Source: a virus. Taken from it: a stretch of DNA of 28,925 nucleotides. The stretch is from positions 1 to 28,925 of the IMG/VR virus record IMGVR_UViG_3300001678_000033. One strand, written 5' to 3'. Shown here piece after piece: positions 1 to 26,800 of this stretch; positions within the stretch are counted from its first letter, which is position 1, and the number at the start of each line of letters is the position of its first letter. The notes under the pieces are model-generated. The model was not told the origin of the DNA and did no database searches. It was given only the letters and a program-made list of their open reading frames with translations. The translations under genes were made by a program, and so were the position numbers.

Positions 1-36
1 CCTCCTGCACAGGTAGGGATAGGAGAAAAAAGATGA
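1..36 (+). CDS. 3' end of an upstream gene, possibly the major tail protein (partial)
   Basis: Frame 1 is open from the window edge to a TGA at 34-36 that overlaps the next start as ATGA, the coupling style used repeatedly in this cluster. Only eleven codons are visible (PPAQVGIGEKR), so no family can be read from them. In lambda-type tails the gene before G is the major tail protein V, hence the guess. A second possibility is frame 2, which stops with TAG at 14-16. Confidence 0.3.
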   Translation, partial: PPAQVGIGEKR

Positions 37-476
37 GTGAAGTAACAGAGAAAACACAAAAAAGAAAGTTAAGCCTTTCTAGCCTATTGACGCCTTCTAA
101 GACAGTAGAAGTAGATTATCCAGGCTTTCCCGGGTTTAAAATACAGTTAACGTATTTAGGCCGTGATGAGCTTTTGAAATTAAGAAAAAAAGCTACAACA
201 ACGAAATTCGATCGTAAGACTCGCCAACCACATGATGAAGTGGATGACGACGTATTCATGCAATTGTATTCTGACGCCGTTATTAACGGATGGTCAGGCT
301 TTAAATACAAATACTTAGCCCAGTTAACACCAATTGATGAAACTGGTGTAGACGCACAAGAAACATTAGACTATACTTCTGATGATGCTTACATTTTAAT
401 GAAGCATTCTCCAGATTTCGATGGTTTTATTGCCGATACTGTGGGTGACCTTCAAAATTTTACTACGAACAGTTAG
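33..476 (+). CDS. G: Tail assembly chaperone, lambda gpG-like
   Basis: This 147-residue protein sits just before a frameshift signal, a T-like domain and the tape measure gene, which is the fixed position of the lambda gpG family. Chaperones of this kind bind the tape measure protein in the cytoplasm and keep it soluble while tail tube subunits are recruited; they are not part of the finished tail. The start at 33 has a good ribosome binding site, AGGAG at 21-25, 7 bases upstream. The N terminus is Lys/Ser-rich (LSLSSLLTPSKTVEVDYPGF) and the body is acidic, with a DEVDDDVFMQLYSDAVINGW stretch typical of tail chaperones. The zero-frame product ends shortly after the slippery site, with FTTNS before TAG at 474-476. 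The assignment rests on gene order, length and the frameshift signal more than on sequence identity. Confidence 0.85.
   Translation: MSEVTEKTQKRKLSLSSLLTPSKTVEVDYPGFPGFKIQLTYLGRDELLKLRKKATTTKFDRKTRQPHDEVDDDVFMQLYSDAVINGWSGFKYKYLAQLTPIDETGVDAQETLDYTSDDAYILMKHSPDFDGFIADTVGDLQNFTTNS
455..461 (+). promoter_or_regulatory. Slippery heptamer for -1 ribosomal frameshift (A AAT TTT)
   Basis: The zero-frame codons here are AAT (456-458) and TTT (459-461), preceded by an A. This fits X XXY YYZ exactly. A slip of one base back re-pairs the tRNAs on AAA and TTT and continues with TAC at 461. That frame stays open to 844 and includes the 527-844 open frame. It lies 12 bases before the zero-frame stop at 474-476. 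Confidence 0.85.
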
Positions 477-844
477 ACGCTCTAACTGATCAATTAAGTT
501 TATACCTACGTCATGAAGACATAGGTATGACTAAAGATCGTGTACTCGAATTGCATAGGCAAATGGGTACAGAACCTACTGAAGAAGAGTTACCTCCAGA
601 TATGGATGACTTTGCTCAGGAAGTTCAAGAAGCCTTTACTATATATGGGCTTCTTCAAGATCGTGTAGAAGGTATGGGAACTTATCTAGGAAAGGACTAC
701 AGCTATGTTAAAGACATGCTGGACGTTTATGCCTATGAGGACCCAAAACTCATATTGTTTTTAGTACGGTACATAGATAACGTCAGAGTAGAAATCTATA
801 ACAAAAAGATGGAAGCTAAGTCTAAATCTAAAAACAATAGGTAG
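461..844 (+). CDS. GT: T domain of the G-T tail assembly chaperone, made by -1 frameshift
   Basis: The full product is join(33..461,461..844): 143 residues of the G-like protein followed by 127 residues, 270 in all, close to the size of lambda gpGT. The junction reads DLQNF then YYEQLDALTDQLSLYLRHED, a smooth helical continuation. The first ATG in this frame is at 527, but no convincing ribosome binding site precedes it, so independent translation is unlikely. The domain is helical and acidic in its first half and ends very basic (KKMEAKSKSKNNR). In lambda the T domain binds the major tail protein and so brings tube subunits to the G-coated tape measure. The tape measure gene starts 7 bases after the stop. 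Confidence 0.85.
   Translation, partial: YYEQLDALTDQLSLYLRHEDIGMTKDRVLELHRQMGTEPTEEELPPDMDDFAQEVQEAFTIYGLLQDRVEGMGTYLGKDYSYVKDMLDVYAYEDPKLILFLVRYIDNVRVEIYNKKMEAKSKSKNNR
470..488 (+). promoter_or_regulatory. Hairpin downstream of the slippery site (frameshift stimulator)
   Basis: CAGTTAGA (470-477), loop CGC (478-480) and TCTAACTG (481-488) form a perfect 8-bp stem. It begins 8 bases after the heptamer, within the usual spacing for stimulatory structures. The stem contains the zero-frame TAG. No pairing of the loop to make a pseudoknot was seen. Confidence 0.7.
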
Positions 845-851
845 ATAGCCA

Positions 852-3800
852 ATGGCCAGCAAGAACAAAAATATACAAATAATTGTAACTAGTAAGGGAC
901 TCAAGGAAGTAAAACGCGACCTTGTATCTATTCGTAAACTTACTGGCCCAGGCAAATCTAACAGTATCAAGGTTAACCTCAGTGTTAACCAGCAAGGCTT
1001 TCAGCAATCCGTGCAGAAAGCTTTCAATTCCATTGCGTCTAAGAAGATAAAACTTAGCGTAAACCAAAAACATTTAACCAAATCCCTTAATGAAGCTATT
1101 CGAAAGATAGAGGCTAGAGGTATTCGGTTAAATGCTGCCACTTCGGTTACCGGTAGTAGGAACGGGGACGATAAATCTACAAGTAAAATTGCTGCCTCTA
1201 ACATGATCGGCGGTGTGGCGTACCAAAGAGAGCAAGCAGAAGCTACTCGCGCAGGCACCAATGCGCAGAATGATGGTAACAGAATCACTCAAAAATTAGG
1301 CGATGATTTGAGTGGGCTAAGCCGGGCAATTGATCATCTATCTGATACCACTAAAGCCTTCACGAAGAGCGCTACAAAGATGGATGCTATGATTAAGGGA
1401 CTGAATGCTGAGCTCAAACACAGTAGGCGCGTCTCTGAGGCGTTGCATATTGTTATTAAGGCTTCGGCTAAGTCATACGCTGCAGGCAATAAGATAAACA
1501 TGCAGGTAGCTAGGCAGGCGGCTCTAACTAACAAGAATTTAGAAAGACTAATAAGAGGCCTATTGCACTTAGAAATAGCTACTAAGAAGGGGCTTGGACA
1601 ACCTACAAAAAGCGCACAAGGTGACTTAGATCAAATGGCGTCGAGAGCCCATACCAGGCGTAGTATATCCACTGGGCTTGGAATGGCGACAGGATTCGAT
1701 CCGGGTGCAGATCCGGCTAAAAGTAGGGAGCGTTCACTATACAACCTAAATAAAAATATATCCCAGGCTCAAGAAGTGGGCTCTCCTACCTTTACGCACG
1801 AAAAGGAAAAATACAACGTTGCTTCGACTGTGGACATGCAGCATGCACTGGGGTCTGCTAATAAGCTAGCTATACTAGATAGTCTCAAATCAACGACTGA
1901 ATCATCAAAAAATAAAAGTGGCGACGCATCAAAGATTGAGAACGATAAGGTTGCGAAGTCAGCTGCGAAATTGGCTGCACAGCAGAAACTGGGTACAGCT
2001 GCCGAAAAGGCTCATACTAAGGCGGTAAATGCCGATACCGCAGCACTTAATAAAAACATACAAGTAGACAAATCATCTAAAAAGGGACAGCAAGCACCTT
2101 CTAGGGGTGGTGCACCTGTAGCAGTTACGGGTGGTAAACGCCCAGTAGACTCCTACACGAGAAACCGCGGAATCATAGGTACTAAAGGCGGAGGGGGAGA
2201 CTTCTCACACATGGCATCTGGTATGGGCGGCTTCGTTGGTGTGTACGCCGAAATCGCTGCTAAGACTTTCGCATTAGGAGCCGCGTTTAGGGCCCTTAAA
2301 GAAGCGGCAGACTTTGGAGTACTTATAGATGGTATGAAAGCTTATGAAGCAGCCTCTGGTGCCAGCTTATTGACCGTTGCTAGAAAGGTAAAGGAAATAA
2401 CCCAGCACACCGTAGGTCTTAAGCAGGCTTCACAAAGTGTTACTATGTCTATAGCCTCAGGTTTTGATTCTTCTCAGATTGAGAAAATGGCAGTAGCAGC
2501 AAGAAATGCTGGTATGGCTTTGGGAAGGGATCTAGGCGATTCCTTAGAGAGAGTTATAAAAGGTGTTACTAAAGCAGAGCCCGAGCTACTAGACGAATTA
2601 GGAATCATACTAAGACTAGAAACCGCTTCTGCGAAGTACGCAAAAACTCTAGATAAATCCGTAAAAGAACTGACCATATTTGAAAAACAGCAAGCAGTAC
2701 TTAATGAAGTTTTAGACCAGGCAGATAAAAAGTTTGGCCTTCTAGGTTCTCAGATGGAGGGCAAAGCCAACTCATTCTCAGCCCTGGCAGCCTCACTTAC
2801 CGACGGAGCATTGAAGCTAGGTAACGATGCTATGGACTGGAATATGTTCTTCGGCGTAGGCAGTTTGAAGGACGTAGCAGGATTCTTTGCTGAGAACGCC
2901 ACTGCAGTTATAGCTGCTATGGCCGGGTTAGCATCCTTCCTATTACGTGGTATAATGCCACAATTTTCCAAGTTTAATGATAGCTACGCTAAGAAAGCGG
3001 AAGGCTTAGTTGCAACTAACAAAAGACTTACAAGGTCTTTTAAGGATGCCCGTAGTGACGTATCCTCAATGCGAGAAAGAGGAGCCGAGTCCCTAGGTTC
3101 TGCTAGTGCAGGGGAGTACGAGCAGGCAATATCTAGTCAATTTAGAAAGGGCACTAAGCAAGGATCTATAGGACTCGCGTACTCGGGGGTTGTTGCAGGT
3201 GTTGACGCCGCGTACGACGAGCCTGAAACACTGGCCGCTAGTAAATTTATAGAAAAAGACCGATATGATGAGCCGGTTAAAGGTGCTACGAAGCTAACGC
3301 AAAGCCAGCAAGCAGCAAGCTATATGCAAAGGGAGCTTGGGGGACAAGTTACAGAGGCCCTTAAACAGGTAGATACTACTAAGGCTAAAACTGCTAAAAT
3401 AGTACATGAAGGCTTAAACATTGATACAACGCTAGATAGAAGACAGCTACAAGACCTACAAAGTTCTTACTTAGCAGTTGAGAAAGCACAAGCAGAAGCT
3501 TTGGGAGATCCTGAGGCGATAAAGCGTACGACGAAGGCAATGGATAAGCACCTGCAGACTCTTAGTACTAGGTCCCAAGCAGCAGGAGCCAACGCTAACA
3601 AGTGGCAAAAGTCCTGGAGCAATAGCTTAAATGCTGTTAAGGTTGCCCACCTAGACTGGGCTTCCAAGTCCTCTCAGGCCAACAAGATAGTTGCGGAAGC
3701 GCAGACGCAGGTACAGAATACTTTCGAGCACGAAGGACTATTAGCTGGACTGGGTCACGCCAAGTCTAGAGCTATAGAAGTAAGAGCGGAATTAACTAAG

Positions 3801-6800
3801 ATTATAGCTATGTCTAAGCAGGCTTCTGAAGAGGCCCGTAAGGCGTCCAAAGAAAAATACCGTAAAAGCAAAAGTATTGCTAAAACAGACGCTCTACCTA
3901 ATAATAATCTAGATAGATCAGCAGGGTTACTTATTAAAACTAGAGCTGCGGGCAAGTTGGGAGATCGACTAGGCAATAAGGCACTAGACAAGTACCATGC
4001 TTCTAGTCAGGCGCTACTTAGAACTTGGTTACGTATTCAAAAGGCAGTAGTAGGAACCAAACTCAAAACAGTTCCATTAGTAGGGGCTGTAAAAAGCATG
4101 TCTTCTTTTGCTATGAAAGCAATACAAGTGGTAGCAGTAGTTACCATGGTAGAATCAGCAGTAAAAGGGCTATTTAGCGCTTTCGGGCTTACCACTAAAT
4201 ACGTGTCCAAGTCTATATCCTCTATGAAGTCTTTTGGGGATGAACTGGACTCCCAGCAGGAGAAGTGGAAAGGGTATAAATCCCAAATAGCTTCCTTTAC
4301 CTCTGGGTTTGTGGGACTAGGGGATGCGGCTAAGCATTCCGCGGAGTCTCTTTCCTCTTTCTCTTCTGGGTTCCAGAAAATGACTACTGATGCCTCTATA
4401 GCCTTTGAGAACTTAACATGGGGAGACAAATTAGGAGAGTTTTACTCTGAATGGACGTTCTGGAATGACTCCATGGATGAGCAGTTAGAAACTCAGGCAA
4501 AGAAGTTTAAGCAAGTTATACAGCAATCAGTTCATCTAAGGCAAGTAGCCTCTGCTGCAGGTATATCTACAGAAAATATAACTATGCTACAGGATAACGG
4601 AAAGCCTTCTGCGGAAATGACTAATTTTATTAAACATGCAAAGCTAGCCGAGGAGGCTGCTCGTAACTTATCTGGTAACATAAAAGGACTGGGCACAGCA
4701 TACAAGGACTTAGGTTCTGCTACAGATGCCTTCAATAAGGGCATTATACCCAGCACTGTTTTTGATACTATAGTTAAAGGCACTAACACGGTAGTAAAAG
4801 CATTTAAAAGCTCCTTCTTAACTAAGGAAGCTAAGTCAGGACTAAGAGATGAAATAGGTAAGCTAGCTATAGCAGCCCAAGATGCTATATCAGATATAGA
4901 TAAGATGGAAGACACCTTTAAAGTTAAGATTTTCAAAGGCTCTAACTTTAACATAGCTGCTATGAAAAAAACGTTTGATGAAAAGGGAGATGTGAATGGC
5001 TATGAGAGACGGTTCACTGATGAGCGGCTTGAAGGGCTAAATAAGACGGAGCGCTCTGGAAAAAGAGGACACGTAACCAAGGAGTCCACGTCCAACTGGG
5101 CTGCCGCCTCTAGAGAGGAGCAGAAAGCTAGAATACTAGCTCATGCTGAAGCCGCTTTAAAATCTCAATTTTCCGAAATGCCAGAGGGCGAACTAGCAAA
5201 GATACAGGATACAGTTAGCAAGAAGATGGTCGCCGGTCTAGCTAAGCTAGAGGCTACTAGTACTAGTAAGGGGTACAGCAGTAAAGAACTGACAAAGCTG
5301 TACAAGGAAACAATGAAGGAGTCTGTTACAGACAAGGCACTTAAGAGCTACGGGTACTCTAATATAATAAGAAGCCAGCTTGATACCTTGCAGAACTCTA
5401 CTAAGAATGCTATACAGCATTGGACAGGAAAGAACCTTAGTGACCTAGCTAACGTAAGCACTAAAGAAGAACTAGACACTAATCTGAAAAAAATGGGAGT
5501 AGCTTTAGAGGAGTATAACGCTAAGATGAGAGCGTCTCAGGCTATAGCACAGAATTTAAAAAGCGAGATAGCGGAGTTAAACTATAATAAGTCTAAATTT
5601 GAAAAGGCGGGAACTTCCAGCGCTTTAGCATCGTCCTTAATTACGCAGAACGATGTTATACGTAAACAGACTACGCTTCTTGTAAACCAAAAAGAACATA
5701 TGGAAGCGTCTCTAGACATGGAGAACGGCGCCATAGCTGACACTATTGCTAACACCCAGACAAAGATAGCTATTAATCTTAAGCAGGCTGAGATCACTAG
5801 AGCTACGGAGAGTATATTAAGTACCTCTTTAATAAAGCATAAAGCTATAAATTTAGAAGTTGGCAAGTGGGTAGATAACGCCACTAAGATAAATACTATA
5901 TACGGTACTACCTTATCCAGCTTACTTAGTATCGGCGCGATAACTACAAAGTCCTCAACTGCCCAGAATTACCTACTGAAGCAAAAGAGTGAAGAAATAT
6001 CTCTAATAAAGAAGATTGCGGCACTACACGCCGAACGAGCTGCTAAACTAGAAGATCAGAGCGCTGAGGAACAAGCCCGTATTAAGGCTGAGTACACAGG
6101 AAGGGAAGATATACTGAGGCTTAGCACAAAGGCTAATAAAGAAAATAGTAAGAGAGCCTTTGACAAATCTATGTTAGAGCACAGAATAAATTCTTATGAA
6201 ACTCTTTTACAAAGAGCCAAGGATTATGCAGGTCTAATAAACCAGATTACCCAAGCAGAGTTCAGCCTGGGGGGAATATCCAAATCCTCTAATATGGTGG
6301 AGGAATTCTTCAATAGCAAAGGGTCGTTAGATCAAGAGTACGATTCTATAAAAGCTATAAGAGATGAAAGACAAAAAATGGCCATGGACGAGGCACAGAA
6401 TAAGGCGGCAACTTTAGAGCTACACACAGCAGAAAATGAACACGCCAGAAATATATACCTAAAGAAGTCCGAGATACTTCAAGTAGAAACAGCAATAAAG
6501 TTACAGCTACTAGCTCAGACTTCTGCTGTAGAGGCGCAGGACAAGTTACTTTCTGCTAGAGAGGCTAAATCTAGTGCTCAACTGGCCTCTATAAACAAAG
6601 CTAATAACGCTGCAGGAATAGCATCTAAGAAGGAACTTATAGCCGATAGGCTTAAAGAGAAAACATCTAAGAGAATACTTGCTACCGCTATGCTAACCAA
6701 AAAGCTAAATAGTGTGGGCACCTCTGTAGAGGAAAAAGCAGCTATAAACAAAAAGATTCAAGCACAGAGCATATCTCTAGAGTCCGATAGACTATCTGCT

Positions 6801-9800
6801 ATTAATGCTATGGTAGATGCTCTAAGAGAAGAGCATGATTTACGAAAGGCCTCTGGAGAGCTACTATTACAAGAGGAGTTAGCGTATAGAGCTATGGAAG
6901 AGGCTAAGAACTATAATGCTACAGACTCTGCAGCTGATGCAATTTACGCTAATGTAGACAGCGGTGTAGACTTAATTACTTCTAATCTTAAGGAATTTGG
7001 TACTATATACGGTAACGTAGGTAAAGAGAGATTTGATAATCAAAGATGGATGGACTTCGGTGAACGTTTAATAGACCAGGGAGCTGAGGATTCTAAAAGG
7101 ATAATTAAGAGTGCTATAGGTGGGGAGCTAACACTGGAGCAAACATCTAAAGCAAGCCTTGTTAAACTAGGAATAACTAACTTCACTCTAGAGGAACTGC
7201 TTGCGACACAGAAGGATGTCCTAAATGCCACTCTTGCACTGGGTAACAGATCGTCCCTGCTGAAGACAGACGTAGTGACTAAGGCCTTTACGGACCCTGA
7301 GCTAGCAACGGATGATACACGAAAGGCCCTAATAGATGCCGCTAAGGTTATAACACAAAAAATAGGAACAGAACAGGGTAATAGTACAACTATACTAGTT
7401 GATCAGTTGATCACTATCAATAGCACCCTTAACAAACTAGGGAATGGGTTGACAGTTGCGATAACAAAAGGCCTGACTGAGTTCACGAAGAAAGAAGTGA
7501 CTAAAGAAGCCTTAGATATTGAGATAGGTAAGAAAGAAGCTAAGTCTACTATATCTACTTCATCGGAAGCTTTATCGGCTATAGGCACTATTGAAGTAAA
7601 CTTTGGGGGGCTACAGGACTACCTTACCAAACAATTGGCTAACCCTACTACTACCCTAAAGGGTGCTGAGGCCCTACAAAAGGCGCTTGCTGGCTTGGGA
7701 GACAAGTTTCCGGGTTTAATATCCCAAAGCAAACGGCTAGTTGATAGCCTTACTAGTAGCAAAACAGCAGTTGACTTAAATACTGAAGAGCACAAACTAG
7801 GTACTACTGCCCAGAAGGAAGGTACAATAGGACTGGCGGAAAACACAACAGCAGTTAAATCCAAGGAACCTATTAGTAACGTTACTAATAACATTACTAA
7901 TGTTACTAATTTAGCCGTAGACACAGAGGCAGTGGCCACAATAGTGTCTGAGGCGTTAATAAATCGTGCGGACAGACAGAAGAATAGGGGTAATAGGGAT
8001 ACAGTAGTATTTGATAAGGGGGTTCTAGACTTAGCAAGAGGTGGTCACATTACAGGACCTGGTGGACCTAAAGACGATGTTATACCTGCTTGGCTATCTA
8101 ATGGGGAGTTTGTTGTTAATGCGGCCGCTGCCAATGATAATAGGTCATTACTAGAGCACATTAACTCAGGCAATAAGATTAGCGGGTTTGCAGAAGGTAC
8201 TGCTACTTCAACTGGTGACCCCTTTGGTGCTGCACCAACATGGGACCCTATCGGTCTATACAGTTCACTAACACCTATAGCACAAGGCATACTAGACAAG
8301 GTAGATTCTACTACGCTAGTAATATTAGATTTCTTAAATCCTATTGTAGGACTAGGTGATACAGCCGACAATATGTTAATTGAGTTAATGCTGTTTAACA
8401 CATCATTTGACGACTTACTAAGTGAGCTACAGTACGTACAGCCTGGAAGCGAGGGCAACCTAATAGAGAATATTAATTCTGCATTTGCGGAATTAAAGCC
8501 AGTATTTGCCGACTTAAAGCCAATACTTAGTGATTTAAAACCAATAATGGAAAGACTTTCTAAGGGAGGAGTATGGGATACCCTATTCCCTGATTCTGAG
8601 TCTGAAGTTCAAGCTCCTAGAGTAATGCGCAATCGAAGATCTGCTTCATCCGTAGAGGTAGAGAAAAGAGCGAATGGTGGAGCTATTAGAGGCCCTGGGG
8701 GTCCTAAAGAAGACTTAATACCTGCTCTACTATCTAATGGTGAGTACGTAATTAACGCTGCTTCTACTAAGAAGCATGAGCCTCTTATACAAGCTATTAA
8801 TGAAGATAACGTCTCTCAATTTATGTCTGGCGGAAGAGCTAATGATGACATAGCTAGATTCAACGGAGGGGGTATGGTTCCTCCTAAAACTAATACTAAG
8901 GCTGTCAAAGCTATATACGCCGGTAGGTTCAGTAAGGGTGTTGAATTTGCGCACTGGCCTAGTGAAACTAGGGGTATGAAGAATGGTATACAAGGTTCGG
9001 TACGTTACGTAAGGGAAGGCAATAAAATAGTTAATATGCGTATGGATGCCCCTAAGGGAGGCCCAAGCTCCGCTCAGCTACTAAATGCTCTACTTAAGAA
9101 CAATCCTGAGATAACTTCTATAGACCCACTACAAACTACTCCAGGTAAAAAATTCAAGGACCCTAAAGGGTACGGAATCAACAAAATGCGAGGCGGAGGT
9201 GACCAGTCTCTAAAGACTTTGAGATACTTAGCCGGTCTACATGGAGTTGAGGTACTTGAGACATACGAAGAGATGGAAGACAGATGGGCACGCGAGTCTA
9301 AGGTTAAAGATGTAGAAAAGCGTACGATGCCTAGAAAAGGAGCAAGCATGCAAAGCATGCCTAAAGCAGGACTGCTTAAAACTGCTCTAAGATTTGTACC
9401 GGGACTAGGAGCCGCTATTACTGCAGCTGACTTTGCCTCTATGTACAATCCATTTGAGAAGGAATATACTTCTGTAATGGAGAGAGACTTTAGTGATAAG
9501 AAGGGTAAGAAGGACAACCCATTTGGCTCTCTTAACCTTAAGTTTGCGGAAGGCGGTATTGCTAAGTTTATGTCAGGCGGCCCAGTAGATGAGGATGAGT
9601 ATGCAAAAGGAAGGGCTTGGCAGAAACATCTGAAGGAGTACCAAAAGGAGTATCAGCCCAAATATCGCGCTAAGAAAAAGCTAGAAGCAGCAGCAGATGC
9701 GGAAAAAAAGGCTAAAAAGGCTATCTATAATAAGGAGTACAACGCCAGGAAAAAGGCAGAAAAATTGGCTAAACCTACGGAGGCTCCTTGGAAAAAACAG

Positions 9801-11663
9801 TTTACACAAGATACCTCTAAGTACGGCAAAGGAACTCCAAAGGTATCGCAGACTAACTTATTTGGTAATAAGCAAGGATTTGATAGCAAGTGGTTAAAAG
9901 GGGCAGGACATCAGCCTACATTGCCTGGTATGGACTCTAAGAACGTATATACTGACAAGTGGAAGAAGCAGTTTATAAAGGACCTTACTAAGTATGGAAG
10001 AGGCTCTTCGCAACTAGACCTACTTCCACAAAATAGATTACCGTTCACAGGTCCGGGTATACCTAGAAGCAGCGGTCCGTCTATGAGAGCGAATGCAGCT
10101 AGATTTGGCAAGGCTTTCCTAAAATTTGGCTTAGGCCCTGTAGGGATAGGACTAACTGCAGCAGAATTAATATCTTGGTACATGGAAGAAGATGATACTG
10201 CTAAGAGTGTTATGGACGGGATTGGAGAAGACAATAAGGGTCTAGTAATAGACTTAGGACCTACACAGGGTAAGAGTGCTATAACAGGCAAAGAGTACGC
10301 TAACGGTGGAATGGCTAAGAAGTACGCTAGATTTGCACATGGCGGATTAGCTGGAATGGGGAGAAATGGAGATACTGAGCTAGCTCATGTAAACCCAGAA
10401 GAGTCTAAAGTACTTAAGTCTATGGGCGGGTCTGGTTCTATTAATCCTAAAACGGGTCTACGTGAGTACGCTGGAGGTAAGAGTTCATCTGAAGCAATAG
10501 ATAAGGCGAGACATCAGTTAGAGATATCGCACTTGCAAGCATTAATTGAAGTTTCGAAATCATCATTAGATCAAACAATATCTCATAAAGCCCTAAAAGA
10601 GAGTAGCAACGCTACCGACGCTGAGATTGCAGAAAGCTCCTTGAAGTTAAACGCTACTAACGCTAGAATGGAAAAGGCTATAGATAAACTAGCTAAGAGT
10701 TCAGGTCCTACAACGGCCGGAGTAAATAACAAGTACCTTGGAGAGTTGTTGGGCAATTCCTTTAAAAAAGGAATTGGAACGGCGATATTAAAGAACGACT
10801 GGTCAAATTTACTGGAAAATGTTGCTGGTTCCTTTGCAGAGGACTTACAAACCACTTACTTAGGTAATGCAGAAGTGGCGGCGAAGGAGATGTTTACACA
10901 AATGTTTACCGATGCTGATATGGGCGGGAATAGGAAAGTCTCAGACAAGTCTGATGTACAAATGGCTCCTGATGGTATCATGCAAGCTGTAGGCGACTTA
11001 TTTACTAATCACGGTAAAAATAGCTTCATGGATAATATAATTGGAGACCTAGGGGGACTATTCAGCGGAGCCGGAAAGTCTCTAGGTAATGCTGGCAACG
11101 GAATATGGGGTATGTTATCTAACATGTTCAGCAGCATGTTCTCTAAAGGTGGCTATGCTCAGTTTTCTAAAGGCGGATTTGCTAAATTTGCAGAGGGCGG
11201 TAACGTACGCGGATCAGGGGGTCCTACGTCGGATAGTATACCTGCTTGGTTATCTAATGGAGAGTACGTTATTAACGCGGAATCAACAGCACAGTATAGA
11301 CCTATTCTAGAGTCTATAAATGCTGGTGAACTAGCTAAGGGTGGATTTGCAAAGTTTGCTAAAGGTGGATTTGCTAAGTTCTCTGAGGGTGGTATATCTT
11401 CAGTAGAGTCAGCACTGCTATCCGGAGATAACATTGGTTACATAGCTCCTATAGCACAACCTAGTAACAAAGCTTCTTCAGGCTCGTCTACTAATACTGT
11501 TAATGTTACAGTTAACGTATCCAGCGCTGGAACTTCTGTAGATGTAGAGGATTCTCAGGGAGATGTAGAAAAGTCTAGAGCACTAGGAGATATGATAGGT
11601 CTTAAGATACAACAACAACTTATAGAGGAGCAAAAGCCTGGCGGTCTTTTGAGTGAGTACTAA
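852..11663 (+). CDS. H: Tape measure protein, 3603 residues, lambda gpH-like
   Basis: This is the tail length ruler, packed inside the tube and released at DNA ejection. Its position after G/GT and before M, plus its size, make the call firm. Residues about 1-450 are basic and helical. Residues about 490-670 carry the classic tape measure segment (SIASGFDSSQIEKMAVAARN, later LGIILRLETASAKYAKTL). Hydrophobic stretches lie near 454-490, 667-702, 1075-1115, 2842-2866 and 3085-3110. Residues about 1200-2350 are long coiled-coil-like helices. From about 2397 the protein changes to Gly-rich modules with three copies of a 28-residue motif (2397, 2609, 3449), a possible inserted domain (about 2680-2820) and duplicated charged blocks. 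The C terminus (NTVNVTVNVSSAG then KPGGLL) is typical of the family. No lysozyme or peptidase motif was recognised. The start lies 7 bases after the GT stop; its ribosome site is weak (AGGT at 840-843), suggesting translational coupling. Confidence 0.95.
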   Translation: MASKNKNIQIIVTSKGLKEVKRDLVSIRKLTGPGKSNSIKVNLSVNQQGFQQSVQKAFNSIASKKIKLSVNQKHLTKSLNEAIRKIEARGIRLNAATSVTGSRNGDDKSTSKIAASNMIGGVAYQREQAEATRAGTNAQNDGNRITQKLGDDLSGLSRAIDHLSDTTKAFTKSATKMDAMIKGLNAELKHSRRVSEALHIVIKASAKSYAAGNKINMQVARQAALTNKNLERLIRGLLHLEIATKKGLGQPTKSAQGDLDQMASRAHTRRSISTGLGMATGFDPGADPAKSRERSLYNLNKNISQAQEVGSPTFTHEKEKYNVASTVDMQHALGSANKLAILDSLKSTTESSKNKSGDASKIENDKVAKSAAKLAAQQKLGTAAEKAHTKAVNADTAALNKNIQVDKSSKKGQQAPSRGGAPVAVTGGKRPVDSYTRNRGIIGTKGGGGDFSHMASGMGGFVGVYAEIAAKTFALGAAFRALKEAADFGVLIDGMKAYEAASGASLLTVARKVKEITQHTVGLKQASQSVTMSIASGFDSSQIEKMAVAARNAGMALGRDLGDSLERVIKGVTKAEPELLDELGIILRLETASAKYAKTLDKSVKELTIFEKQQAVLNEVLDQADKKFGLLGSQMEGKANSFSALAASLTDGALKLGNDAMDWNMFFGVGSLKDVAGFFAENATAVIAAMAGLASFLLRGIMPQFSKFNDSYAKKAEGLVATNKRLTRSFKDARSDVSSMRERGAESLGSASAGEYEQAISSQFRKGTKQGSIGLAYSGVVAGVDAAYDEPETLAASKFIEKDRYDEPVKGATKLTQSQQAASYMQRELGGQVTEALKQVDTTKAKTAKIVHEGLNIDTTLDRRQLQDLQSSYLAVEKAQAEALGDPEAIKRTTKAMDKHLQTLSTRSQAAGANANKWQKSWSNSLNAVKVAHLDWASKSSQANKIVAEAQTQVQNTFEHEGLLAGLGHAKSRAIEVRAELTKIIAMSKQASEEARKASKEKYRKSKSIAKTDALPNNNLDRSAGLLIKTRAAGKLGDRLGNKALDKYHASSQALLRTWLRIQKAVVGTKLKTVPLVGAVKSMSSFAMKAIQVVAVVTMVESAVKGLFSAFGLTTKYVSKSISSMKSFGDELDSQQEKWKGYKSQIASFTSGFVGLGDAAKHSAESLSSFSSGFQKMTTDASIAFENLTWGDKLGEFYSEWTFWNDSMDEQLETQAKKFKQVIQQSVHLRQVASAAGISTENITMLQDNGKPSAEMTNFIKHAKLAEEAARNLSGNIKGLGTAYKDLGSATDAFNKGIIPSTVFDTIVKGTNTVVKAFKSSFLTKEAKSGLRDEIGKLAIAAQDAISDIDKMEDTFKVKIFKGSNFNIAAMKKTFDEKGDVNGYERRFTDERLEGLNKTERSGKRGHVTKESTSNWAAASREEQKARILAHAEAALKSQFSEMPEGELAKIQDTVSKKMVAGLAKLEATSTSKGYSSKELTKLYKETMKESVTDKALKSYGYSNIIRSQLDTLQNSTKNAIQHWTGKNLSDLANVSTKEELDTNLKKMGVALEEYNAKMRASQAIAQNLKSEIAELNYNKSKFEKAGTSSALASSLITQNDVIRKQTTLLVNQKEHMEASLDMENGAIADTIANTQTKIAINLKQAEITRATESILSTSLIKHKAINLEVGKWVDNATKINTIYGTTLSSLLSIGAITTKSSTAQNYLLKQKSEEISLIKKIAALHAERAAKLEDQSAEEQARIKAEYTGREDILRLSTKANKENSKRAFDKSMLEHRINSYETLLQRAKDYAGLINQITQAEFSLGGISKSSNMVEEFFNSKGSLDQEYDSIKAIRDERQKMAMDEAQNKAATLELHTAENEHARNIYLKKSEILQVETAIKLQLLAQTSAVEAQDKLLSAREAKSSAQLASINKANNAAGIASKKELIADRLKEKTSKRILATAMLTKKLNSVGTSVEEKAAINKKIQAQSISLESDRLSAINAMVDALREEHDLRKASGELLLQEELAYRAMEEAKNYNATDSAADAIYANVDSGVDLITSNLKEFGTIYGNVGKERFDNQRWMDFGERLIDQGAEDSKRIIKSAIGGELTLEQTSKASLVKLGITNFTLEELLATQKDVLNATLALGNRSSLLKTDVVTKAFTDPELATDDTRKALIDAAKVITQKIGTEQGNSTTILVDQLITINSTLNKLGNGLTVAITKGLTEFTKKEVTKEALDIEIGKKEAKSTISTSSEALSAIGTIEVNFGGLQDYLTKQLANPTTTLKGAEALQKALAGLGDKFPGLISQSKRLVDSLTSSKTAVDLNTEEHKLGTTAQKEGTIGLAENTTAVKSKEPISNVTNNITNVTNLAVDTEAVATIVSEALINRADRQKNRGNRDTVVFDKGVLDLARGGHITGPGGPKDDVIPAWLSNGEFVVNAAAANDNRSLLEHINSGNKISGFAEGTATSTGDPFGAAPTWDPIGLYSSLTPIAQGILDKVDSTTLVILDFLNPIVGLGDTADNMLIELMLFNTSFDDLLSELQYVQPGSEGNLIENINSAFAELKPVFADLKPILSDLKPIMERLSKGGVWDTLFPDSESEVQAPRVMRNRRSASSVEVEKRANGGAIRGPGGPKEDLIPALLSNGEYVINAASTKKHEPLIQAINEDNVSQFMSGGRANDDIARFNGGGMVPPKTNTKAVKAIYAGRFSKGVEFAHWPSETRGMKNGIQGSVRYVREGNKIVNMRMDAPKGGPSSAQLLNALLKNNPEITSIDPLQTTPGKKFKDPKGYGINKMRGGGDQSLKTLRYLAGLHGVEVLETYEEMEDRWARESKVKDVEKRTMPRKGASMQSMPKAGLLKTALRFVPGLGAAITAADFASMYNPFEKEYTSVMERDFSDKKGKKDNPFGSLNLKFAEGGIAKFMSGGPVDEDEYAKGRAWQKHLKEYQKEYQPKYRAKKKLEAAADAEKKAKKAIYNKEYNARKKAEKLAKPTEAPWKKQFTQDTSKYGKGTPKVSQTNLFGNKQGFDSKWLKGAGHQPTLPGMDSKNVYTDKWKKQFIKDLTKYGRGSSQLDLLPQNRLPFTGPGIPRSSGPSMRANAARFGKAFLKFGLGPVGIGLTAAELISWYMEEDDTAKSVMDGIGEDNKGLVIDLGPTQGKSAITGKEYANGGMAKKYARFAHGGLAGMGRNGDTELAHVNPEESKVLKSMGGSGSINPKTGLREYAGGKSSSEAIDKARHQLEISHLQALIEVSKSSLDQTISHKALKESSNATDAEIAESSLKLNATNARMEKAIDKLAKSSGPTTAGVNNKYLGELLGNSFKKGIGTAILKNDWSNLLENVAGSFAEDLQTTYLGNAEVAAKEMFTQMFTDADMGGNRKVSDKSDVQMAPDGIMQAVGDLFTNHGKNSFMDNIIGDLGGLFSGAGKSLGNAGNGIWGMLSNMFSSMFSKGGYAQFSKGGFAKFAEGGNVRGSGGPTSDSIPAWLSNGEYVINAESTAQYRPILESINAGELAKGGFAKFAKGGFAKFSEGGISSVESALLSGDNIGYIAPIAQPSNKASSGSSTNTVNVTVNVSSAGTSVDVEDSQGDVEKSRALGDMIGLKIQQQLIEEQKPGGLLSEY
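8040..8123 (+). repeat. Tape measure Gly/Pro motif, copy 1
   Basis: Residues 2397-2424 of the tape measure. Key residues are GG, GPGGP, D, IPAWLSNGEF and VNA. It is one of three copies of 28 residues in this protein. The motif is widespread in the C-terminal part of lambda-type tape measures; its exact role is not established. Confidence 0.85.
8676..8759 (+). repeat. Tape measure Gly/Pro motif, copy 2
   Basis: Residues 2609-2636: GGAIRGPGGPKEDLIPALLS followed by NGEYVINA. It has the same length and residue pattern as the copies at 8040 and 11196. Confidence 0.85.
9789..10004 (+). repeat. Duplicated WKKQF block in the tape measure
   Basis: Two related 15-residue segments begin at residue 2980 (WKKQFTQDTSKYGKG, 9789-9833) and residue 3037 (WKKQFIKDLTKYGRG, 9960-10004), 57 residues apart. 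They mark an internal duplication in the charged region between Gly/Pro motif copies 2 and 3. Confidence 0.75.
11142..11201 (+). repeat. Short GGFAKF repeats, block 1
   Basis: Residues 3431-3450 read SKGGYAQFSKGGFAKFAEGG, two to three iterations of an 8-residue unit KGGFAKFx. The same unit occurs again at 11334-11393 and, in looser form, near 9546 (EGGIAKFMSGG) and 10306 (NGGMAKKYARF). Confidence 0.75.
11196..11279 (+). repeat. Tape measure Gly/Pro motif, copy 3
   Basis: Residues 3449-3476: GGNVRGSGGPTSDSIPAWLS followed by NGEYVINA. The first Pro of GPGGP is Ser here. The copy lies between two FAKF-type short repeat blocks. Confidence 0.85.
11334..11393 (+). repeat. Short GGFAKF repeats, block 2
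   Basis: Residues 3495-3514 read AKGGFAKFAKGGFAKFSEGG, the same 8-residue unit as the block at 11142. The two blocks flank the third Gly/Pro motif. Confidence 0.75.
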
Positions 11664-12857: not shown

Positions 12858-13574
12858 ATGGAAAACAATATGAGAGAGCACGCTAAGCGTGAGTACCCAA
12901 GAGAAGCATGCGGATTAGTAGTAGAAATAGAGGGAGAAGAAATATACTTCCCCTGCAAGAACTTATCTGAAAACAGTGACCAAGACTTTATACTAGACCC
13001 TAGGGACTACGCGGACGCAGAAGATGCTGGTACTATAAGGGCAGTATTTCACTCTCACCCTAATGGGTCGTGCAATCCCAGTCCTGCAGACTTAGTATCT
13101 TGTGAGACCTCTATGCTGCCTTGGGTAATATTAAGCTGGCCTGCTAACAGCTTCTATAGATTTGCACCTACTGGGTACTCTGCAGAACTAGAGGGCCGAC
13201 CGTTCTACTATGGGGTACTAGACTGCTGCACTCTGTGCAGAGACCTGTACAGTAGAGAACTATCTATAGATTTTGAGTGTATAGACTCTTCAGGGGTTTA
13301 TCCTAAATTAAACTGGTGGGAAGATAAAGGTGCTGACTACTACGTAGATAACTTTGAGTCACAAGGATTTGTAAAACTGACTGATGAGACCCCTAAGAAG
13401 TACGATATATTCTTAATGAAAGTAGCGTCCCACTCTGCCAACCATGCAGCTGTATACCTGGGAGGCTGCTCTATAATACACCATCTATCGAATAGGCTAT
13501 CTATAAAAGAAGTGTATACCGGATACTGGCAGAAGCATACAGTTCACCATTTAAGACACAAGTCTCTATGCTAA
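12858..13574 (+). CDS. K: Tail tip peptidase, lambda gpK-like (JAMM + NlpC/P60)
   Basis: The 238 residues form two peptidase-type domains. The N-terminal JAMM (Mov34/MPN) domain has Glu16, the motif H65-S-H67, and then S75-P-A-D78, which fits H-x-H-x7-S-x-x-D exactly. The C-terminal NlpC/P60 domain has the likely nucleophile Cys123 in LDCCTLCRDLY, the His196 region (NHAAVYLGG) and a third polar residue candidate near IIHH. Both active sites look intact. gpK proteins are required for tail tip assembly and are thought to cleave a tail protein and/or peptidoglycan; the substrate cannot be told from sequence. The gene begins 2 bases after L and overlaps the first I gene by 7 bases. Confidence 0.93.
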   Translation: MENNMREHAKREYPREACGLVVEIEGEEIYFPCKNLSENSDQDFILDPRDYADAEDAGTIRAVFHSHPNGSCNPSPADLVSCETSMLPWVILSWPANSFYRFAPTGYSAELEGRPFYYGVLDCCTLCRDLYSRELSIDFECIDSSGVYPKLNWWEDKGADYYVDNFESQGFVKLTDETPKKYDIFLMKVASHSANHAAVYLGGCSIIHHLSNRLSIKEVYTGYWQKHTVHHLRHKSLC

Positions 13575-14191
13575 CCGATGTACGACTGTATGGAGAGCTA
13601 GCAGATAAATATGGTAAGGAGTTCCGTTTTGACATAGACTCACCGAAGGATGCAGTAGCCGCATTAGTGGCCAACTTCAGCACCTTTAGGGAGACTATGG
13701 AGGGGGAGGATAAGTACTACGCAGTAATATACGAGGAAGAAAACCTTGATGTAGATACCTTAGTATTAAAGAAGTTTGAAACTACCGGTACTTTAAAGAT
13801 AATACCTGTTATAAGAGGCTCCGGAGACTCTGCACTGGGTAAGATAATAATAGGGGCGTTAATAATATACGCAGCTACTCTTATACCGGGATCCACTGCT
13901 ACCTTTATGCAGCTACTTAGCGGCGCAGAGACTGTGTCCTTCTTACAAACCACCTTAGTATACCTAGGAAAAAGCGTTATGATGAGTGGAGTTACCCAGG
14001 CACTCGCCCCTACCCCTGGCACTGCTACTAGGGCAGATAAGGTAGAGAACTACTATTTCAATGGACCCGTTAATACAACAAGACACGGGAACCCTGTTCC
14101 TATAGCCTATGGCCAACTAATGGTGGGGGGAGCAGTAATAAGTGCTCAAATAGTATCACAAGACAGAACCATTTTAGAGGATAACAGCTAA
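13568..14191 (+). CDS. I: Tail assembly protein, lambda gpI-like, copy 1
   Basis: A 207-residue protein. The N-terminal 80 residues look like a beta-grasp (ubiquitin-like) domain (DVRLYGELADKYGKEFRFDI and GTLKIIPVIRGSG). A hydrophobic Gly/Ala-rich segment follows (KIIIGALIIYAATLIPG). The conserved C-terminal part includes NYYFNGPVNTTRHGNPVPIA and GGAVISAQIVSQD. This is the architecture of lambda gpI, which lies between K and J and is needed for tip assembly. The neighbouring gene encodes a second protein of the same type. Over 41 C-terminal residues the two agree at about 34 positions, but their N-terminal parts are clearly diverged. The stop overlaps the next start as TAATG. Confidence 0.9.
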   Translation: MLTDVRLYGELADKYGKEFRFDIDSPKDAVAALVANFSTFRETMEGEDKYYAVIYEEENLDVDTLVLKKFETTGTLKIIPVIRGSGDSALGKIIIGALIIYAATLIPGSTATFMQLLSGAETVSFLQTTLVYLGKSVMMSGVTQALAPTPGTATRADKVENYYFNGPVNTTRHGNPVPIAYGQLMVGGAVISAQIVSQDRTILEDNS

Positions 14192-14787
14192 TGAGCACTA
14201 TAGTTTTATACGGACATTTAAGAGAGAAGTTGGGTAAGACCTACTCCCTAGATGTGCAATCTGCGGCAGAGGCGATAAGAGCAATGAGTGCCGTAGTACC
14301 TGGATTCAAAGAAGCTATACTAGGAAACGGGGAGACGCCTCTAGCCTATAAAGTATTAATAGGCGATAAAGTAGCTAGTATACACGAATATCAGAACCCA
14401 ACTAGCACCAGTACTATAAGGATAGTACCTGCTATTATGGGCTCCAAAAGTAAGACAGAACAAATACTAACTGGGGCCTTACTTATGTGGGCAGGCAGTG
14501 GCCTCGGGGGCCCGATAGTTCCAGGTGGTGACGGTCTGAGCATGATGCAAGCGGCAGGAAGTATGATGTCCAACTTCGGAATGTCTATGGTAATGTCCGG
14601 TATAGCACAAATGCTGGCACCTGACCCTGTGGATACCCCAGAGACGCCTAAGAACTACTACTTCAATGGCCCCGTTAATACAACAAAACAAGGAACTCCA
14701 GTACCCGTGGCCTACGGGCAGGTACTAGTAGGAGGAGCAGTAATAAGCGCTCAAATAGTCTCACAAGATAAAACCAGATTAGATTAG
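14191..14787 (+). CDS. I: Tail assembly protein, lambda gpI-like, copy 2
   Basis: A 198-residue paralogue of the preceding gene, starting at the TAATG overlap. It has the same order of parts: a beta-grasp-like N terminus (IVLYGHLREKLGKTYSLDV, TIRIVPAIMGS), a hydrophobic middle rich in Gly and Met (ILTGALLMWAGSGLGG, MSNFGMSMVMSGIAQMLAP) and the conserved C terminus (NYYFNGPVNTTKQGTPVPVA, GGAVISAQIVSQD). Lambda has a single I gene, so this is a duplication. The Met-rich middle differs from copy 1. The two proteins may form a hetero-oligomer in the tip or act at different assembly steps; the sequence does not decide. J starts 13 bases after the stop, with AGAGGA as its ribosome site. Confidence 0.9.
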   Translation: MSTIVLYGHLREKLGKTYSLDVQSAAEAIRAMSAVVPGFKEAILGNGETPLAYKVLIGDKVASIHEYQNPTSTSTIRIVPAIMGSKSKTEQILTGALLMWAGSGLGGPIVPGGDGLSMMQAAGSMMSNFGMSMVMSGIAQMLAPDPVDTPETPKNYYFNGPVNTTKQGTPVPVAYGQVLVGGAVISAQIVSQDKTRLD

Positions 14788-20771: not shown

Positions 20772-21899
20772 ATGGCAAATTGGAATAACCCTCGCCAAGA
20801 AAGTACCTACACGCAAGTTTTAGGGGAGTTTAAGGAAAGAGATGAGGATGCTGCTAAGCAGTTCCGTAACTACGGAGACAACGCAATACTAGGTAGTTCA
20901 TGGCCTATAGGAACTATTAGGTTCGACGGCGCACAATGGCTTACTTGGAGTGGAACTACCTGGAGTATCCTATCTACCTCTTACAATATAAATGTGGATA
21001 GGTTGGGCACTCACTCTGCTTCTACGGCTGGAGGAGCGGGTAATATTCCTGTATGTGGGGATACAGTACAAACTAATCTAAACGCTGATAAGCTTGATGG
21101 GTATCATGCGGGAACAGGGCAACTACAAATACCTATATCGAACGGTACTGTATGTGTTAACCTTAATGCAGATAAGCTTGATGGGTACGACGCAGGAACC
21201 GCCTCAGGTAATATACCTATATCTAACGGCAATAAGTGTACTAACCTCAACGCAGATCTATTAGACGGGTACCATGCGGGAACCGCTAGTGGTAATATAC
21301 CAGTATCTAACGGTAATAAGTGTATAAATTTAAACGCTGATATGCTTGACGGACTTACCTCGGGAAATAATAGTGGAAATATACCTATATCTAACGGTAG
21401 CCTGTGCGTAAACTTAAACGCAGATAACCTTGAGGGTCTATCCTCTGGAAATGGAAACGGTAATATACCTATATCTAACGGTGTTATATGTACTAACTTA
21501 AACGTTGAGAAGATATCCGGTAAATTATTATCTGACCTGTCTTTAGCCCATACACATCCATACCTTCCTACTAACCCCTCCTCTGGATCCGCTACATTTA
21601 CAGGTAACTTAACTGTTACAGGTGGAATTACAGAAAGCTCTGATGCAGCATTAAAGTATGATATACTACCTATACAGGGTGCTTTACATACTATTAGCCA
21701 ACTTAAGGGGTCAACCTATAAGTGGAAATCTGATAATAAGAGTTCTATAGGACTTATAGCACAGGAGGTAGCAAAGGTTGTACCAGATGCTGTTACATAC
21801 GGAGAAGATGGGGAAGCTGTAGGAGTACAGTACACCAGACTTATAGCCCTGCTTATTGAAGCAGTAAAAGATTTAAATAACAAATTGGAGAATAAATAA
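20772..21899 (+). CDS. Tail fibre protein with C-terminal S74 self-cleaving chaperone
   Basis: A 375-residue fibre with a strong ribosome site (AAGGAG at 20758-20763). The N terminus (MANWNNPRQESTYTQVLGEF, later PIGTIRFDGAQWLTWSGTTW) resembles virion-binding heads of phage fibres. Residues 90-257 are six tandem 28-residue repeats with GNIPISNG and LNADKLDGYHAG cores. The C-terminal about 86 residues are an S74 intramolecular chaperone domain, with ESSDAALKYDI at 288-298 and SSIGLIAQEVAKVVPDAV. Ser290 and Lys295 have the S-x4-K spacing of the catalytic dyad seen in endosialidase-type chaperones, so trimerisation followed by release of the C-terminal part is likely. The Arg common in the S-D-x-R-x-K motif is Ala here, so cleavage activity is inferred, not certain. 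It probably forms a trimeric side fibre or a tip accessory fibre. Confidence 0.88.
   Translation: MANWNNPRQESTYTQVLGEFKERDEDAAKQFRNYGDNAILGSSWPIGTIRFDGAQWLTWSGTTWSILSTSYNINVDRLGTHSASTAGGAGNIPVCGDTVQTNLNADKLDGYHAGTGQLQIPISNGTVCVNLNADKLDGYDAGTASGNIPISNGNKCTNLNADLLDGYHAGTASGNIPVSNGNKCINLNADMLDGLTSGNNSGNIPISNGSLCVNLNADNLEGLSSGNGNGNIPISNGVICTNLNVEKISGKLLSDLSLAHTHPYLPTNPSSGSATFTGNLTVTGGITESSDAALKYDILPIQGALHTISQLKGSTYKWKSDNKSSIGLIAQEVAKVVPDAVTYGEDGEAVGVQYTRLIALLIEAVKDLNNKLENK
21039..21542 (+). repeat. Six tandem 84-bp (28-residue) repeats in the tail fibre
   Basis: The NAD-x-LDG core begins at 21081, 21165, 21249, 21333, 21417 and 21501, exactly 84 bases apart each time. Each unit reads GNIP-x-SNG-x-x-C-x-NLNAD-x-LDG with a variable end. 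A Cys is present in each unit (in the first it is shifted). The last unit is degenerate (NVEKISGKLLSD). Confidence 0.92.
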
Positions 21900-23863: not shown

Positions 23864-26800
23864 ATGGCTACAATATATCCAATTCATCACGGTATTACGC
23901 TTGCAAGCGGTTCCGAGATAGAAAACGTCGTAATTGAGACGTTAGCAAATGATCCAGCACCCCTTGTAACAGGACGTGTATGGTATAACTCAACTACCGG
24001 CTTCTTAAAAGTTGCACTAGGTAACCCTGCAGTTGCTGCAGACGTTGCAAGTGGTGTTAACGTTGCAGACGCGGTATCTACACTTAGAACTGATCTTCAA
24101 GGTAAACTTGACGCTCTAGACGCTGATACTTACAGTATCGCTGAAACTAACTCTGCTATTGACTTAGCTGTTACTAGTCTAATAGACGGCGCTCCTGGTA
24201 TCCTTGATACTCTTAGTGAGCTAGCTACTGCTATTGGCGACGACGCTAATTTCATTACTACTATTCAGACACAGATCGCAGAAGAAGCTAATCTAGCTCG
24301 TGCTGGTGAAGGTTCTTTAGTATTTGAACACGTAACTGCATCCGATCTTACTGGTGCTATTAATGCTGAAGGCACTCGTGCTAAAGCTGCAGAAGGCACT
24401 AATGCTGACGCTATCTCTACAGAAGCTTCTACTCGTGCTACTGCTACTGGTAACTTAGCTTCTTTGACTACTGGTGCTACTGGTAGCCTAGTAGATGCAA
24501 TCAATGAAGTAAACGATGACGTTACTTCTGCTATCAATGAAATTGACGCTACTCAAGTAGGTGCAGGTTTAGATACTACTGGTTCTTACGTTCCAGATTC
24601 AGCTTCTAACTACATTGGTGCTGCTACTAGCTTAGCTGCTGCTGACTCTGCTCTAGACGCTCAAGCGCGTACTACTGCTGACGATCTTGCTACTGAAGTT
24701 GCTGACCGTTCTAATGCTATTACTGAAGAAGCTACTGCTCGTTCTAATGCAGACGCTACATTACAAGGTCTTATAGACGGTAATACTGCTGACATTAGCT
24801 CTAACGATACAGATATCGCTGCTAATGCTGATGCTAACACAGCGTCTAACGTTAGGATTTCTGCTTTAGAAACTGATGGTACTGTTGCTGCTTTACAAGC
24901 TGAAGTAGACGGAACACAATCTTCTGCTGGACTTAACGCTGACGGTTCTTACTCAGCTACTGCAACATCAAGCTTCATAGCTACTGCAACTTCACTTAAG
25001 AGTGCTGATAACTTACTAGATAGCGCTGTTAAAGCTAACCAAACTGCTATTACTGCTGAAACAGACCGTTCTGTTAGTGCTGAAGCTGGTCTACAGGGTC
25101 AAATTAATGATACTGTAAACGCAACTTCTGCTGCACAAACTGAACTTGACGCTGTTGAAGCAGGTACTGGACTAGGAGTAAATGGTAACTATACTGCTTC
25201 TGTTACTAGTAACTTTGCTGCAACTGCAACGTCACTTAAGAATGCTGATGAGTTATTAGATTCGCAAATCAAGTCTAACTTGACTGCAATCACTACTGAA
25301 GCTTCAGACCGTACTACAGCTGATAATACTCTACAGTCTAACATTGACGCAGTAGTAAACACTGCTAGTGTTAATGCTGGTGCTTTAACTACTGAGACTA
25401 CTCGAGCTAAAGGCGAAGAGTCTAGAATCGAAGGTAAAGTTGATGCTAACACTGGAGACATCGCAGGAAACGTAACAGCTATCGGTAACGAAGCTACTAC
25501 TCGTAGCAACGCTGATACTACTCTTCAAGGTAACATTGATGCAGCTAACTCTGCAACTGAAACTGTTGCATCTGATCTAGGTACTGAAGCTGGACGTGCT
25601 AAGTCTGAAGAATCTAGAATCGAAGGTAAAGTTGACGCTAATGCAACTGACTTAGGTACTGAGACTGCTCGTGCTAAGACTGCTGAAGGCGTAAATGCTG
25701 ATGCTCTTTCTACTGAGACTACTCGTGCTAAAGCTGCTGAAGGCGTAAATGCTGATGCTGTATCTAGTGAAGCTACTACTCGTGGTAACGCTGATACTAC
25801 TCTTCAAGGTAACATTGACTCCGCTAATACAGCGACTGAAACTGTTGCAGCTGACTTAGGTACTGAGACTACTCGTGCTAAGTCTGAAGAAGCTAGAATC
25901 GAAGGTAAAGTTAACACTAACGCATCTGATATCTCTAGTGAGAAAACTCGTGCAACCGGTGTTGAAGCAGACTTAAATACTGCTATATCTGACGAGACTA
26001 CTCGTGCAACTAACGCTGAATCTTCTAACGCTACAGCTATCTCTGATGAAGCAACTCGTGCAACTACTGCAGAAGGAACTCTAACGCAGAACTTGACAAG
26101 TGAATCTACTACTCGTGGAAATGCTGATACGTTACTACAGACTAACATTGACGCTGCTAACACAGCGACAGGTACTGTTGCTACTAACCTAGATACTGAG
26201 ACTACTCGTGCATCTGGTGAAGAAGCTAGAATCGAAACTAAAGTTGATGCTAACACAAGTGCTACAGGTACTGTTGCTGCTGACCTAGCTACTGAGACTA
26301 CTCGTGCTAAAGCTGCTGAAGCTGTTAACACTGGTAACTTCACTACTGAAGTTGCTGACCGTACTCTTGCAGACGCAGACCTACAGTCTAAGCTTGATAC
26401 TGCTAACGGTAAGATTACTCTTAACGATAGTGCTATTACTACTGAAGCTGGTCGTGCTAAAGGTGAAGAAGCTAGAATCGAAGGTAAAGTTGACAATAAT
26501 GCTACAGCAATCGGATTTAACGCTGAAGACATTACTGCTGAAGCTGGACGTGCTCAAAATGCGGAAATTGGTTTAGGTACTGATATCCAAGTTGAAGCTA
26601 ACTCTCGTTCTACTGAAGATGCTAGACTAGCAGGTTTGATTGCTGATAATGCAAGTTCAACAGACGCTGTTGATGCAGCTATCCGTGGTGCTTACAATGC
26701 AACTATCTACACGCATGCATCCGCAGCTTCATCTCTAGTTCACGCTATCCCTCATAACTTAAATAGCAACTTCGTAGAAGTTAGCGTATTTATGTTCTCT

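What the first reader, a model, noticed from the sequence alone, without database searches (positions are those of the whole stretch)
455..488. Complete -1 frameshift signal joining the G and T tail chaperone genes
The heptamer A AAT TTT (455-461) is in the right phase, and an 8-base spacer leads to a perfect 8-bp hairpin (470-488) that includes the zero-frame stop. The -1 frame is open from 461 through 844, giving a 270-residue fusion, and the first ATG of the second frame (527) lacks a ribosome site. Frameshifting between G and T is established for lambda-type phages. The specific heptamer plus a tight AT-rich hairpin here is a clear, testable instance.
Basis: partly seen in the sequence, partly recalled or inferred. 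Interest (0 to 1): 0.7.

Follow-up and report, generated by a model that had tools for sequence, protein, structure and literature searches.

The report
Tail-chaperone frameshift site, direction switched in T5
A marine phage makes a short and a long version of its tail-building helper protein by having ribosomes slip back one base at a conserved slippery spot, and its T5-like relatives appear to slip forward instead at the same amino-acid position, a signal one paper reported absent in T5.

Summary
The finding is right. Heptamer A_AAT_TTT (455-461), an 8-nt spacer, an 8-bp hairpin (470-488) and the overlapping -1 frame (to 844) are all present and far beyond chance. The signal is conserved: of 161 distinct -1 junctions in related viral contigs, 160 carry an in-phase canonical heptamer (AAATTTT 65, AAATTTC 12, GGGAAAC/G 74, AAAAAAC 9). 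In AAATTT lineages a stem of at least 7 bp follows in 43 of 61 junctions (5.8 expected under synonymous shuffling), with compensatory changes. The T frame usually has no usable start codon. So this is almost certainly programmed -1 frameshifting making a G/GT tail assembly chaperone pair: a new member of a known kind.

The surprise is in the relatives. By sequence the chaperones are homologs of those of phage T5. In all 38 distinct T5-side junctions, T5 included, the T frame lies at +1 and the site is UUU_CGN at the homologous Phe codon, a known +1 motif; a published note says T5 and Sugarland lack a predicted frameshift signal. On a tree the direction changed once, while the -1 heptamer type changed at least eight times.

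The parts
33..476 (+). G: tail assembly chaperone, 147 aa, zero frame
   Evidence: phrog_313 E 3.7e-15; predicted fold nearest to the tail chaperones YqbN and HK97 2ob9
444..448 (+). GGTGA, possible Shine-Dalgarno-like stimulator 6 nt before the heptamer
   Evidence: Gly codon here is GGT in 22 of 32 representatives against 30% background; may be protein constraint or relatedness; weak
455..461 (+). slippery heptamer A_AAT_TTT
   Evidence: in phase; a canonical heptamer in 160 of 161 distinct -1 relatives, AAATTTT in 65
462..469 (+). 8-nt spacer
   Evidence: most stems in relatives also start 7-9 nt after the heptamer
470..488 (+). stimulatory hairpin, 8 bp with a 3-nt loop, holds the G stop codon
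   Evidence: stems of 7 bp or more in 43 of 61 against 5.8 expected; covariation 0 of 500 shuffles
461..844 (+). T: -1 frame extension, 127 aa after the slip; GT fusion of 270 aa
   Evidence: phrog_3914 E 5.3e-14; model pLDDT 95 with a helix at residues 2-20 that lies before ATG 527
852..11663 (+). tape measure protein, 3603 aa, the expected client of G/GT
   Evidence: phrog_3779 E 2.5e-42 for the N-terminal part

Best explanation
Programmed -1 ribosomal frameshifting. Most ribosomes translate G and stop at 474. A minority, paused by the hairpin at 470-488, slip back one base while the Asn and Phe tRNAs sit on AAU_UUU, re-pair on AAA_UUU and continue in the -1 frame to 844, making a 270-residue GT protein (junction ...GDLQNF-YYEQLDALTD...). 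By analogy with lambda, many G and few GT bind the tape measure protein during tail assembly, and the T part recruits the major tail protein. Shown here: anatomy, conservation, covariation, absence of T starts. Inferred: that slippage occurs, its rate, and the chaperone role.
For: In-phase heptamer, spacer, hairpin and open -1 frame. Of 161 distinct -1 junctions 160 keep a canonical heptamer, with swaps between AAATTTY, GGGAAAY/G and AAAAAAC. Stem recurrence above synonymous shuffles and compensatory changes. No ATG within 30 T codons in 46 of 64 junctions and no SD before any first ATG. T and G match tail assembly chaperone families next to a tape measure gene. A frameshift with this purpose is established in lambda and many other phages (PMC5009743).
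Against: No expression data. A_AAU_UUU in a phage tail gene was not found in the held literature. Some AAATTT relatives lack an evident hairpin (for example L043, L075, L076). L284-L286 have no canonical heptamer.
Confidence: 0.95

Rival explanations
1. T is made on its own from ATG 527, or by termination-reinitiation after the G stop; heptamer and hairpin are incidental.
For: An ATG exists at 527 and the annotated T genes of several T5-like phages start at such downstream codons.
Against: No SD at 527; 46 of 64 relatives have no ATG in the first 30 T codons and none has an SD. The region before 527 encodes a confidently predicted helix of T. It does not explain heptamer conservation or swaps.
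Confidence: 0.03
2. RNA polymerase slippage on AAAATTTT makes a mixed mRNA population that encodes GT by ordinary translation.
For: The site is a run of four A and four T.
Against: Runs are short for polymerase slippage (general knowledge), relatives replace the site by GGGAAAC, which has no long run but is a strong tandem tRNA site, and an mRNA hairpin at ribosomal spacing is conserved.
Confidence: 0.02
3. The two frames are an assembly or sequencing error splitting one gene.
For: The window is a virus record from sequence data without a cultured isolate.
Against: The same -1 relation occurs in 161 distinct junctions from many contigs.
Confidence: 0.005

Closest known systems
Phage lambda G / GT programmed -1 frameshift and its counterparts in other long-tailed phages (reviewed in PMC5009743)
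   Same: Overlapping chaperone frames just before the tape measure gene; in-phase X_XXY_YYZ near the end of G; -1 fusion; T without its own start.
   Different: Heptamer A_AAU_UUU and a covarying hairpin at an 8-nt spacing; the review counts certain tailed phages among cases without stimulatory signals. G and T match T5-type chaperone families rather than lambda families by sequence.
T5-like (Demerecviridae) tail chaperones, e.g. T5p139/T5p138
   Same: Homologous G and T proteins (24-35% identity in A1), same order before the tape measure, shift site at the same Phe codon.
   Different: T lies in the +1 frame and the site is UUU_CGN instead of a -1 heptamer. Annotated as separate genes; reported to lack a predicted signal in T5 and Sugarland (PMC6256483).
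Influenza A PA-X +1 frameshift at UCC_UUU_CGU (PMC3498833)
   Same: The T5-side relatives carry the same UUU_CGN context at which the P-site Phe tRNA slips forward.
   Different: Unrelated gene and host; the window itself uses -1.

Membership tests
lambda-type G/GT programmed -1 frameshift of tail assembly chaperones | Two overlapping frames in -1 relation immediately before the tape measure gene | tested here: met
   33-476, 461-844, then 852-11663
lambda-type G/GT programmed -1 frameshift of tail assembly chaperones | In-phase X_XXY_YYZ heptamer inside the overlap, evolutionarily kept | tested here: met
   455-461; 160 of 161 distinct -1 junctions
lambda-type G/GT programmed -1 frameshift of tail assembly chaperones | Downstream frame lacks its own ribosome binding site and start | tested here: met
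   No SD before ATG 527; 46 of 64 relatives without ATG in 30 codons
lambda-type G/GT programmed -1 frameshift of tail assembly chaperones | Proteins are tail assembly chaperones by family or fold | tested here: met
   phrog_313 and phrog_3914; the fold of G is nearest to YqbN and HK97 2ob9, Z 5.1 and 4.8, modest
lambda-type G/GT programmed -1 frameshift of tail assembly chaperones | Sequence homology to lambda G and T | tested here: inconclusive
   No Pfam hit for the window's G or T; weak Phage_TAC_5 and TAC_4 hits in a few members
lambda-type G/GT programmed -1 frameshift of tail assembly chaperones | GT fusion made at a low, fixed ratio and needed for tails | not testable with these tools
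   needs a reporter assay, mass spectrometry and mutants
-1 frameshift stimulated by a downstream hairpin | Stem 5-9 nt 3' of the heptamer, kept by compensatory change | tested here: met
   8-nt spacer; 43 of 61 stems against 5.8 expected; covariation 0 of 500 shuffles in both classes; relatedness is not fully controlled
UUU_CGN +1 frameshift (T5-side relatives, not the window) | Open +1 frame with UUU_CGN in the overlap | tested here: met
   38 of 38 distinct junctions and five further phage records; the window itself does not meet it (UUU_ACU, T in -1)

The most novel reading that the evidence does not exclude
One orthologous tail-chaperone pair uses opposite shift directions in two sister phage groups at the same Phe codon: -1 on A_AAU_UUU (or a replacement heptamer) in this window's group, and +1 on UUU_CGN in T5-like phages, including T5 itself, where a published note says no signal is predicted. 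Relatives with AAATTTT followed by CG (L151, L166) hold both signals at once and may show how the direction could flip by a one-base indel downstream.
Probability: 0.85. Interest if true: 0.62.

Novelty: new member of a known kind. Interest (0 to 1): 0.5.

Why it matters
The window's signal adds a large, mostly uncultured phage group to known G/GT frameshifting, with enough natural variants (heptamer swaps, stem covariation) to read the rules of the signal from sequence alone. The comparison with T5-like phages predicts an unannotated GT fusion in T5, a classical laboratory phage, directly testable by mass spectrometry. It suggests that selection keeps the presence of a minority fusion protein, not the direction or sequence of the slip.

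Tried and rejected
Independent T start at 527, polymerase slippage and assembly error were weighed and rejected (see rivals). Hairpin as a transcription terminator: the scan finds none there and no T run follows. Rfam: no match in the window. NCBIfam: no match in 55 G members; no PDB sequence match for G. T had no significant match among solved structures, which says nothing against a shared fold. An upstream Shine-Dalgarno-like stimulator is only weakly supported. Literature: no held paper found that reports a frameshift site in T5-like chaperones or AAAUUUU in a phage tail gene; Xu 2004 and other subscription papers on T5 are not in the library, so priority for the T5 site is unchecked.

Full report
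CHECK OF THE OBSERVATION. The G frame runs 33-476 and reads ...CAA AAT TTT ACT ACG AAC AGT TAG. A_AAT_TTT at 455-461 is therefore in phase for a tandem -1 slip. The first base of the -1 continuation is 461, and that frame is open to 844 (143 + 127 = 270 residues). The spacer 462-469 is 8 nt. The stem 470-477/481-488 is eight Watson-Crick pairs closed by a 3-nt loop and contains the stop codon; it folds at -9.9 kcal/mol with z between -2.9 and -4.4. In the other ORFs of the window an in-phase X_XXY_YYZ occurs at 28 of 8926 codon positions, so about 0.025 would be expected in an 8-codon overlap. The full motif has one match and none in 100 shuffles.

WHAT THE GENES ARE. G matches phrog_313 and T matches phrog_3914, both called tail assembly chaperone; all 55 aligned T relatives match phrog_3914. 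The next gene is a 3603-aa tape measure protein, followed by lambda-type tail-tip genes M, L, K, two I-like genes and J. The predicted G structure (pLDDT 89) has only two matches above Z 2.7, and both are tail chaperones: YqbN (Z 5.1; a TAC by my own knowledge of the family) and HK97 2ob9, Z 4.8. This is modest evidence. T is predicted with pLDDT 95, and its first helix (residues 2-20) lies before ATG 527.

CONSERVATION OF THE SIGNAL. Related loci were fetched from viral contigs and phage records. Among 161 distinct junctions with T in the -1 relation, 160 have a canonical heptamer in phase in the overlap: AAATTTT 65, AAATTTC 12, GGGAAAC 72, GGGAAAG 2, AAAAAAC 9. The exception, L284-L286, reads GCTTTTA. 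On a tree of 77 concatenated G+T sequences built without the shift site, heptamer type changes at least eight times, so what is kept is slipperiness rather than one sequence. That tree is a quick search and many inner branches are weak.

THE HAIRPIN. In 61 distinct AAATTT junctions a stem of at least 7 bp beginning 4-12 nt after the heptamer occurs in 43, against 5.8 expected when codons are shuffled synonymously in the T frame; for 8 bp, 32 against 2.0. Two main geometries occur. The one that includes the window has pair axis 34; the commoner one has CAAGTAG...CTACTTG, axis 43, with a loop of about 10. Both have more double-sided changes than any of 500 shuffles and far more pairing than slid controls. 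Mean folding z is -2.0 in AAATTT junctions, -1.1 in GGGAAA junctions and -0.7 in the +1 group. The hairpin is thus a lineage-specific stimulator. These shuffles do not correct for relatedness, and the two classes were chosen partly by their folds.

EXPRESSION OF T. In 46 of 64 junctions no ATG occurs in the first 30 T codons, and none of the first ATGs has an SD-like tetramer upstream. Independent initiation is therefore unlikely to be the general route.

THE UNEXPECTED PART: DIRECTION. The nearest cultured relatives are T5-like phages (880 records). There the T frame is +1, not -1. In all 38 distinct T5-side junctions the zero frame reads UUU_CGN inside the +1-open overlap, and five more phage records agree: AAS21, KEY, D254, D239 and Eos. 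T5 itself reads ACU_UUU_CGU, and the +1 frame opens only a few codons upstream, which pins the shift to this spot. UUU_CGN is the influenza PA-X motif (PMC3498833), and UUU_Ynn is known to be prone to +1 slippage in bacteria (PMC5009743). The Phe codon is the same alignment column as the Phe of A_AAU_UUU and is invariant in all 55 aligned G proteins. Codon choice is constrained as well: Phe is UUU and Arg is CGN in all 16 representatives, joint probability about 5e-8 from background usage if they were independent, which they are not fully. On the tree the direction changes once. Two -1 members, L151 and L166, have AAATTTT followed by CG and so hold both signals; a single-base indel downstream could flip which signal is productive. 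That last step is my inference.

LITERATURE. Direction variability among tail chaperones of different phages is known (-1, -2 or +1; PMC5009743). What I did not find is a report for T5-like phages; the Sugarland announcement states that T5 and Sugarland lack a predicted signal (PMC6256483). Key subscription papers could not be read.

VERDICT. The reported signal is real and almost certainly functional programmed -1 frameshifting, a new member of a known kind. The within-family direction switch and the T5 site raise the interest. Nothing here measures frameshifting itself.

Noticed in passing
L019 1462-2296 (T5 AY692264, T5p139/T5p138); also L015, L017, L020-L029, L111-L139, L146-L171, L295, L299-L303: T5-like phages have the T chaperone in the +1 frame with UUU_CGN at the homologous Phe codon in every junction sampled; annotated as two separate genes, and reported to lack a predicted frameshift signal in T5 and Sugarland (PMC6256483).
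   Followed up: yes
L151 near 1887; L166 near 1881: AAATTTT followed by CGG or CGC: one site that could serve both -1 and +1 slippage; the T frame is -1 in both.
   Followed up: partly
L284-L286, junction near 1884: The only -1 junction without a canonical heptamer: TCA GCT TTT ACG (G_CTT_TTA). How, or whether, it shifts is unexplained.
   Followed up: no
13568-14191 and 14191-14787: Two tandem lambda gpI-like genes, 38% identical to each other, both phrog_32, where lambda has one.
   Followed up: partly
852-11663: A 3603-aa tape measure protein, about 540 nm of tail at 1.5 A per residue, with three copies of a GxGGPxxDxIPAxLSxGExVxNA motif in its C-terminal third.
   Followed up: no
33-20752: Mosaic tail module: T5-family chaperones joined to a lambda-type tip (M, L, K, I, J), whereas T5 itself has a different tip (the latter from general knowledge).
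   Followed up: no
21129-21504 and 25490-26007: Tandem repeats inside fibre-like genes: 84-bp units, and 54/279-bp units in a 1018-aa ORF; long ORFs in other frames there are probably by-products of the repeats.
   Followed up: no
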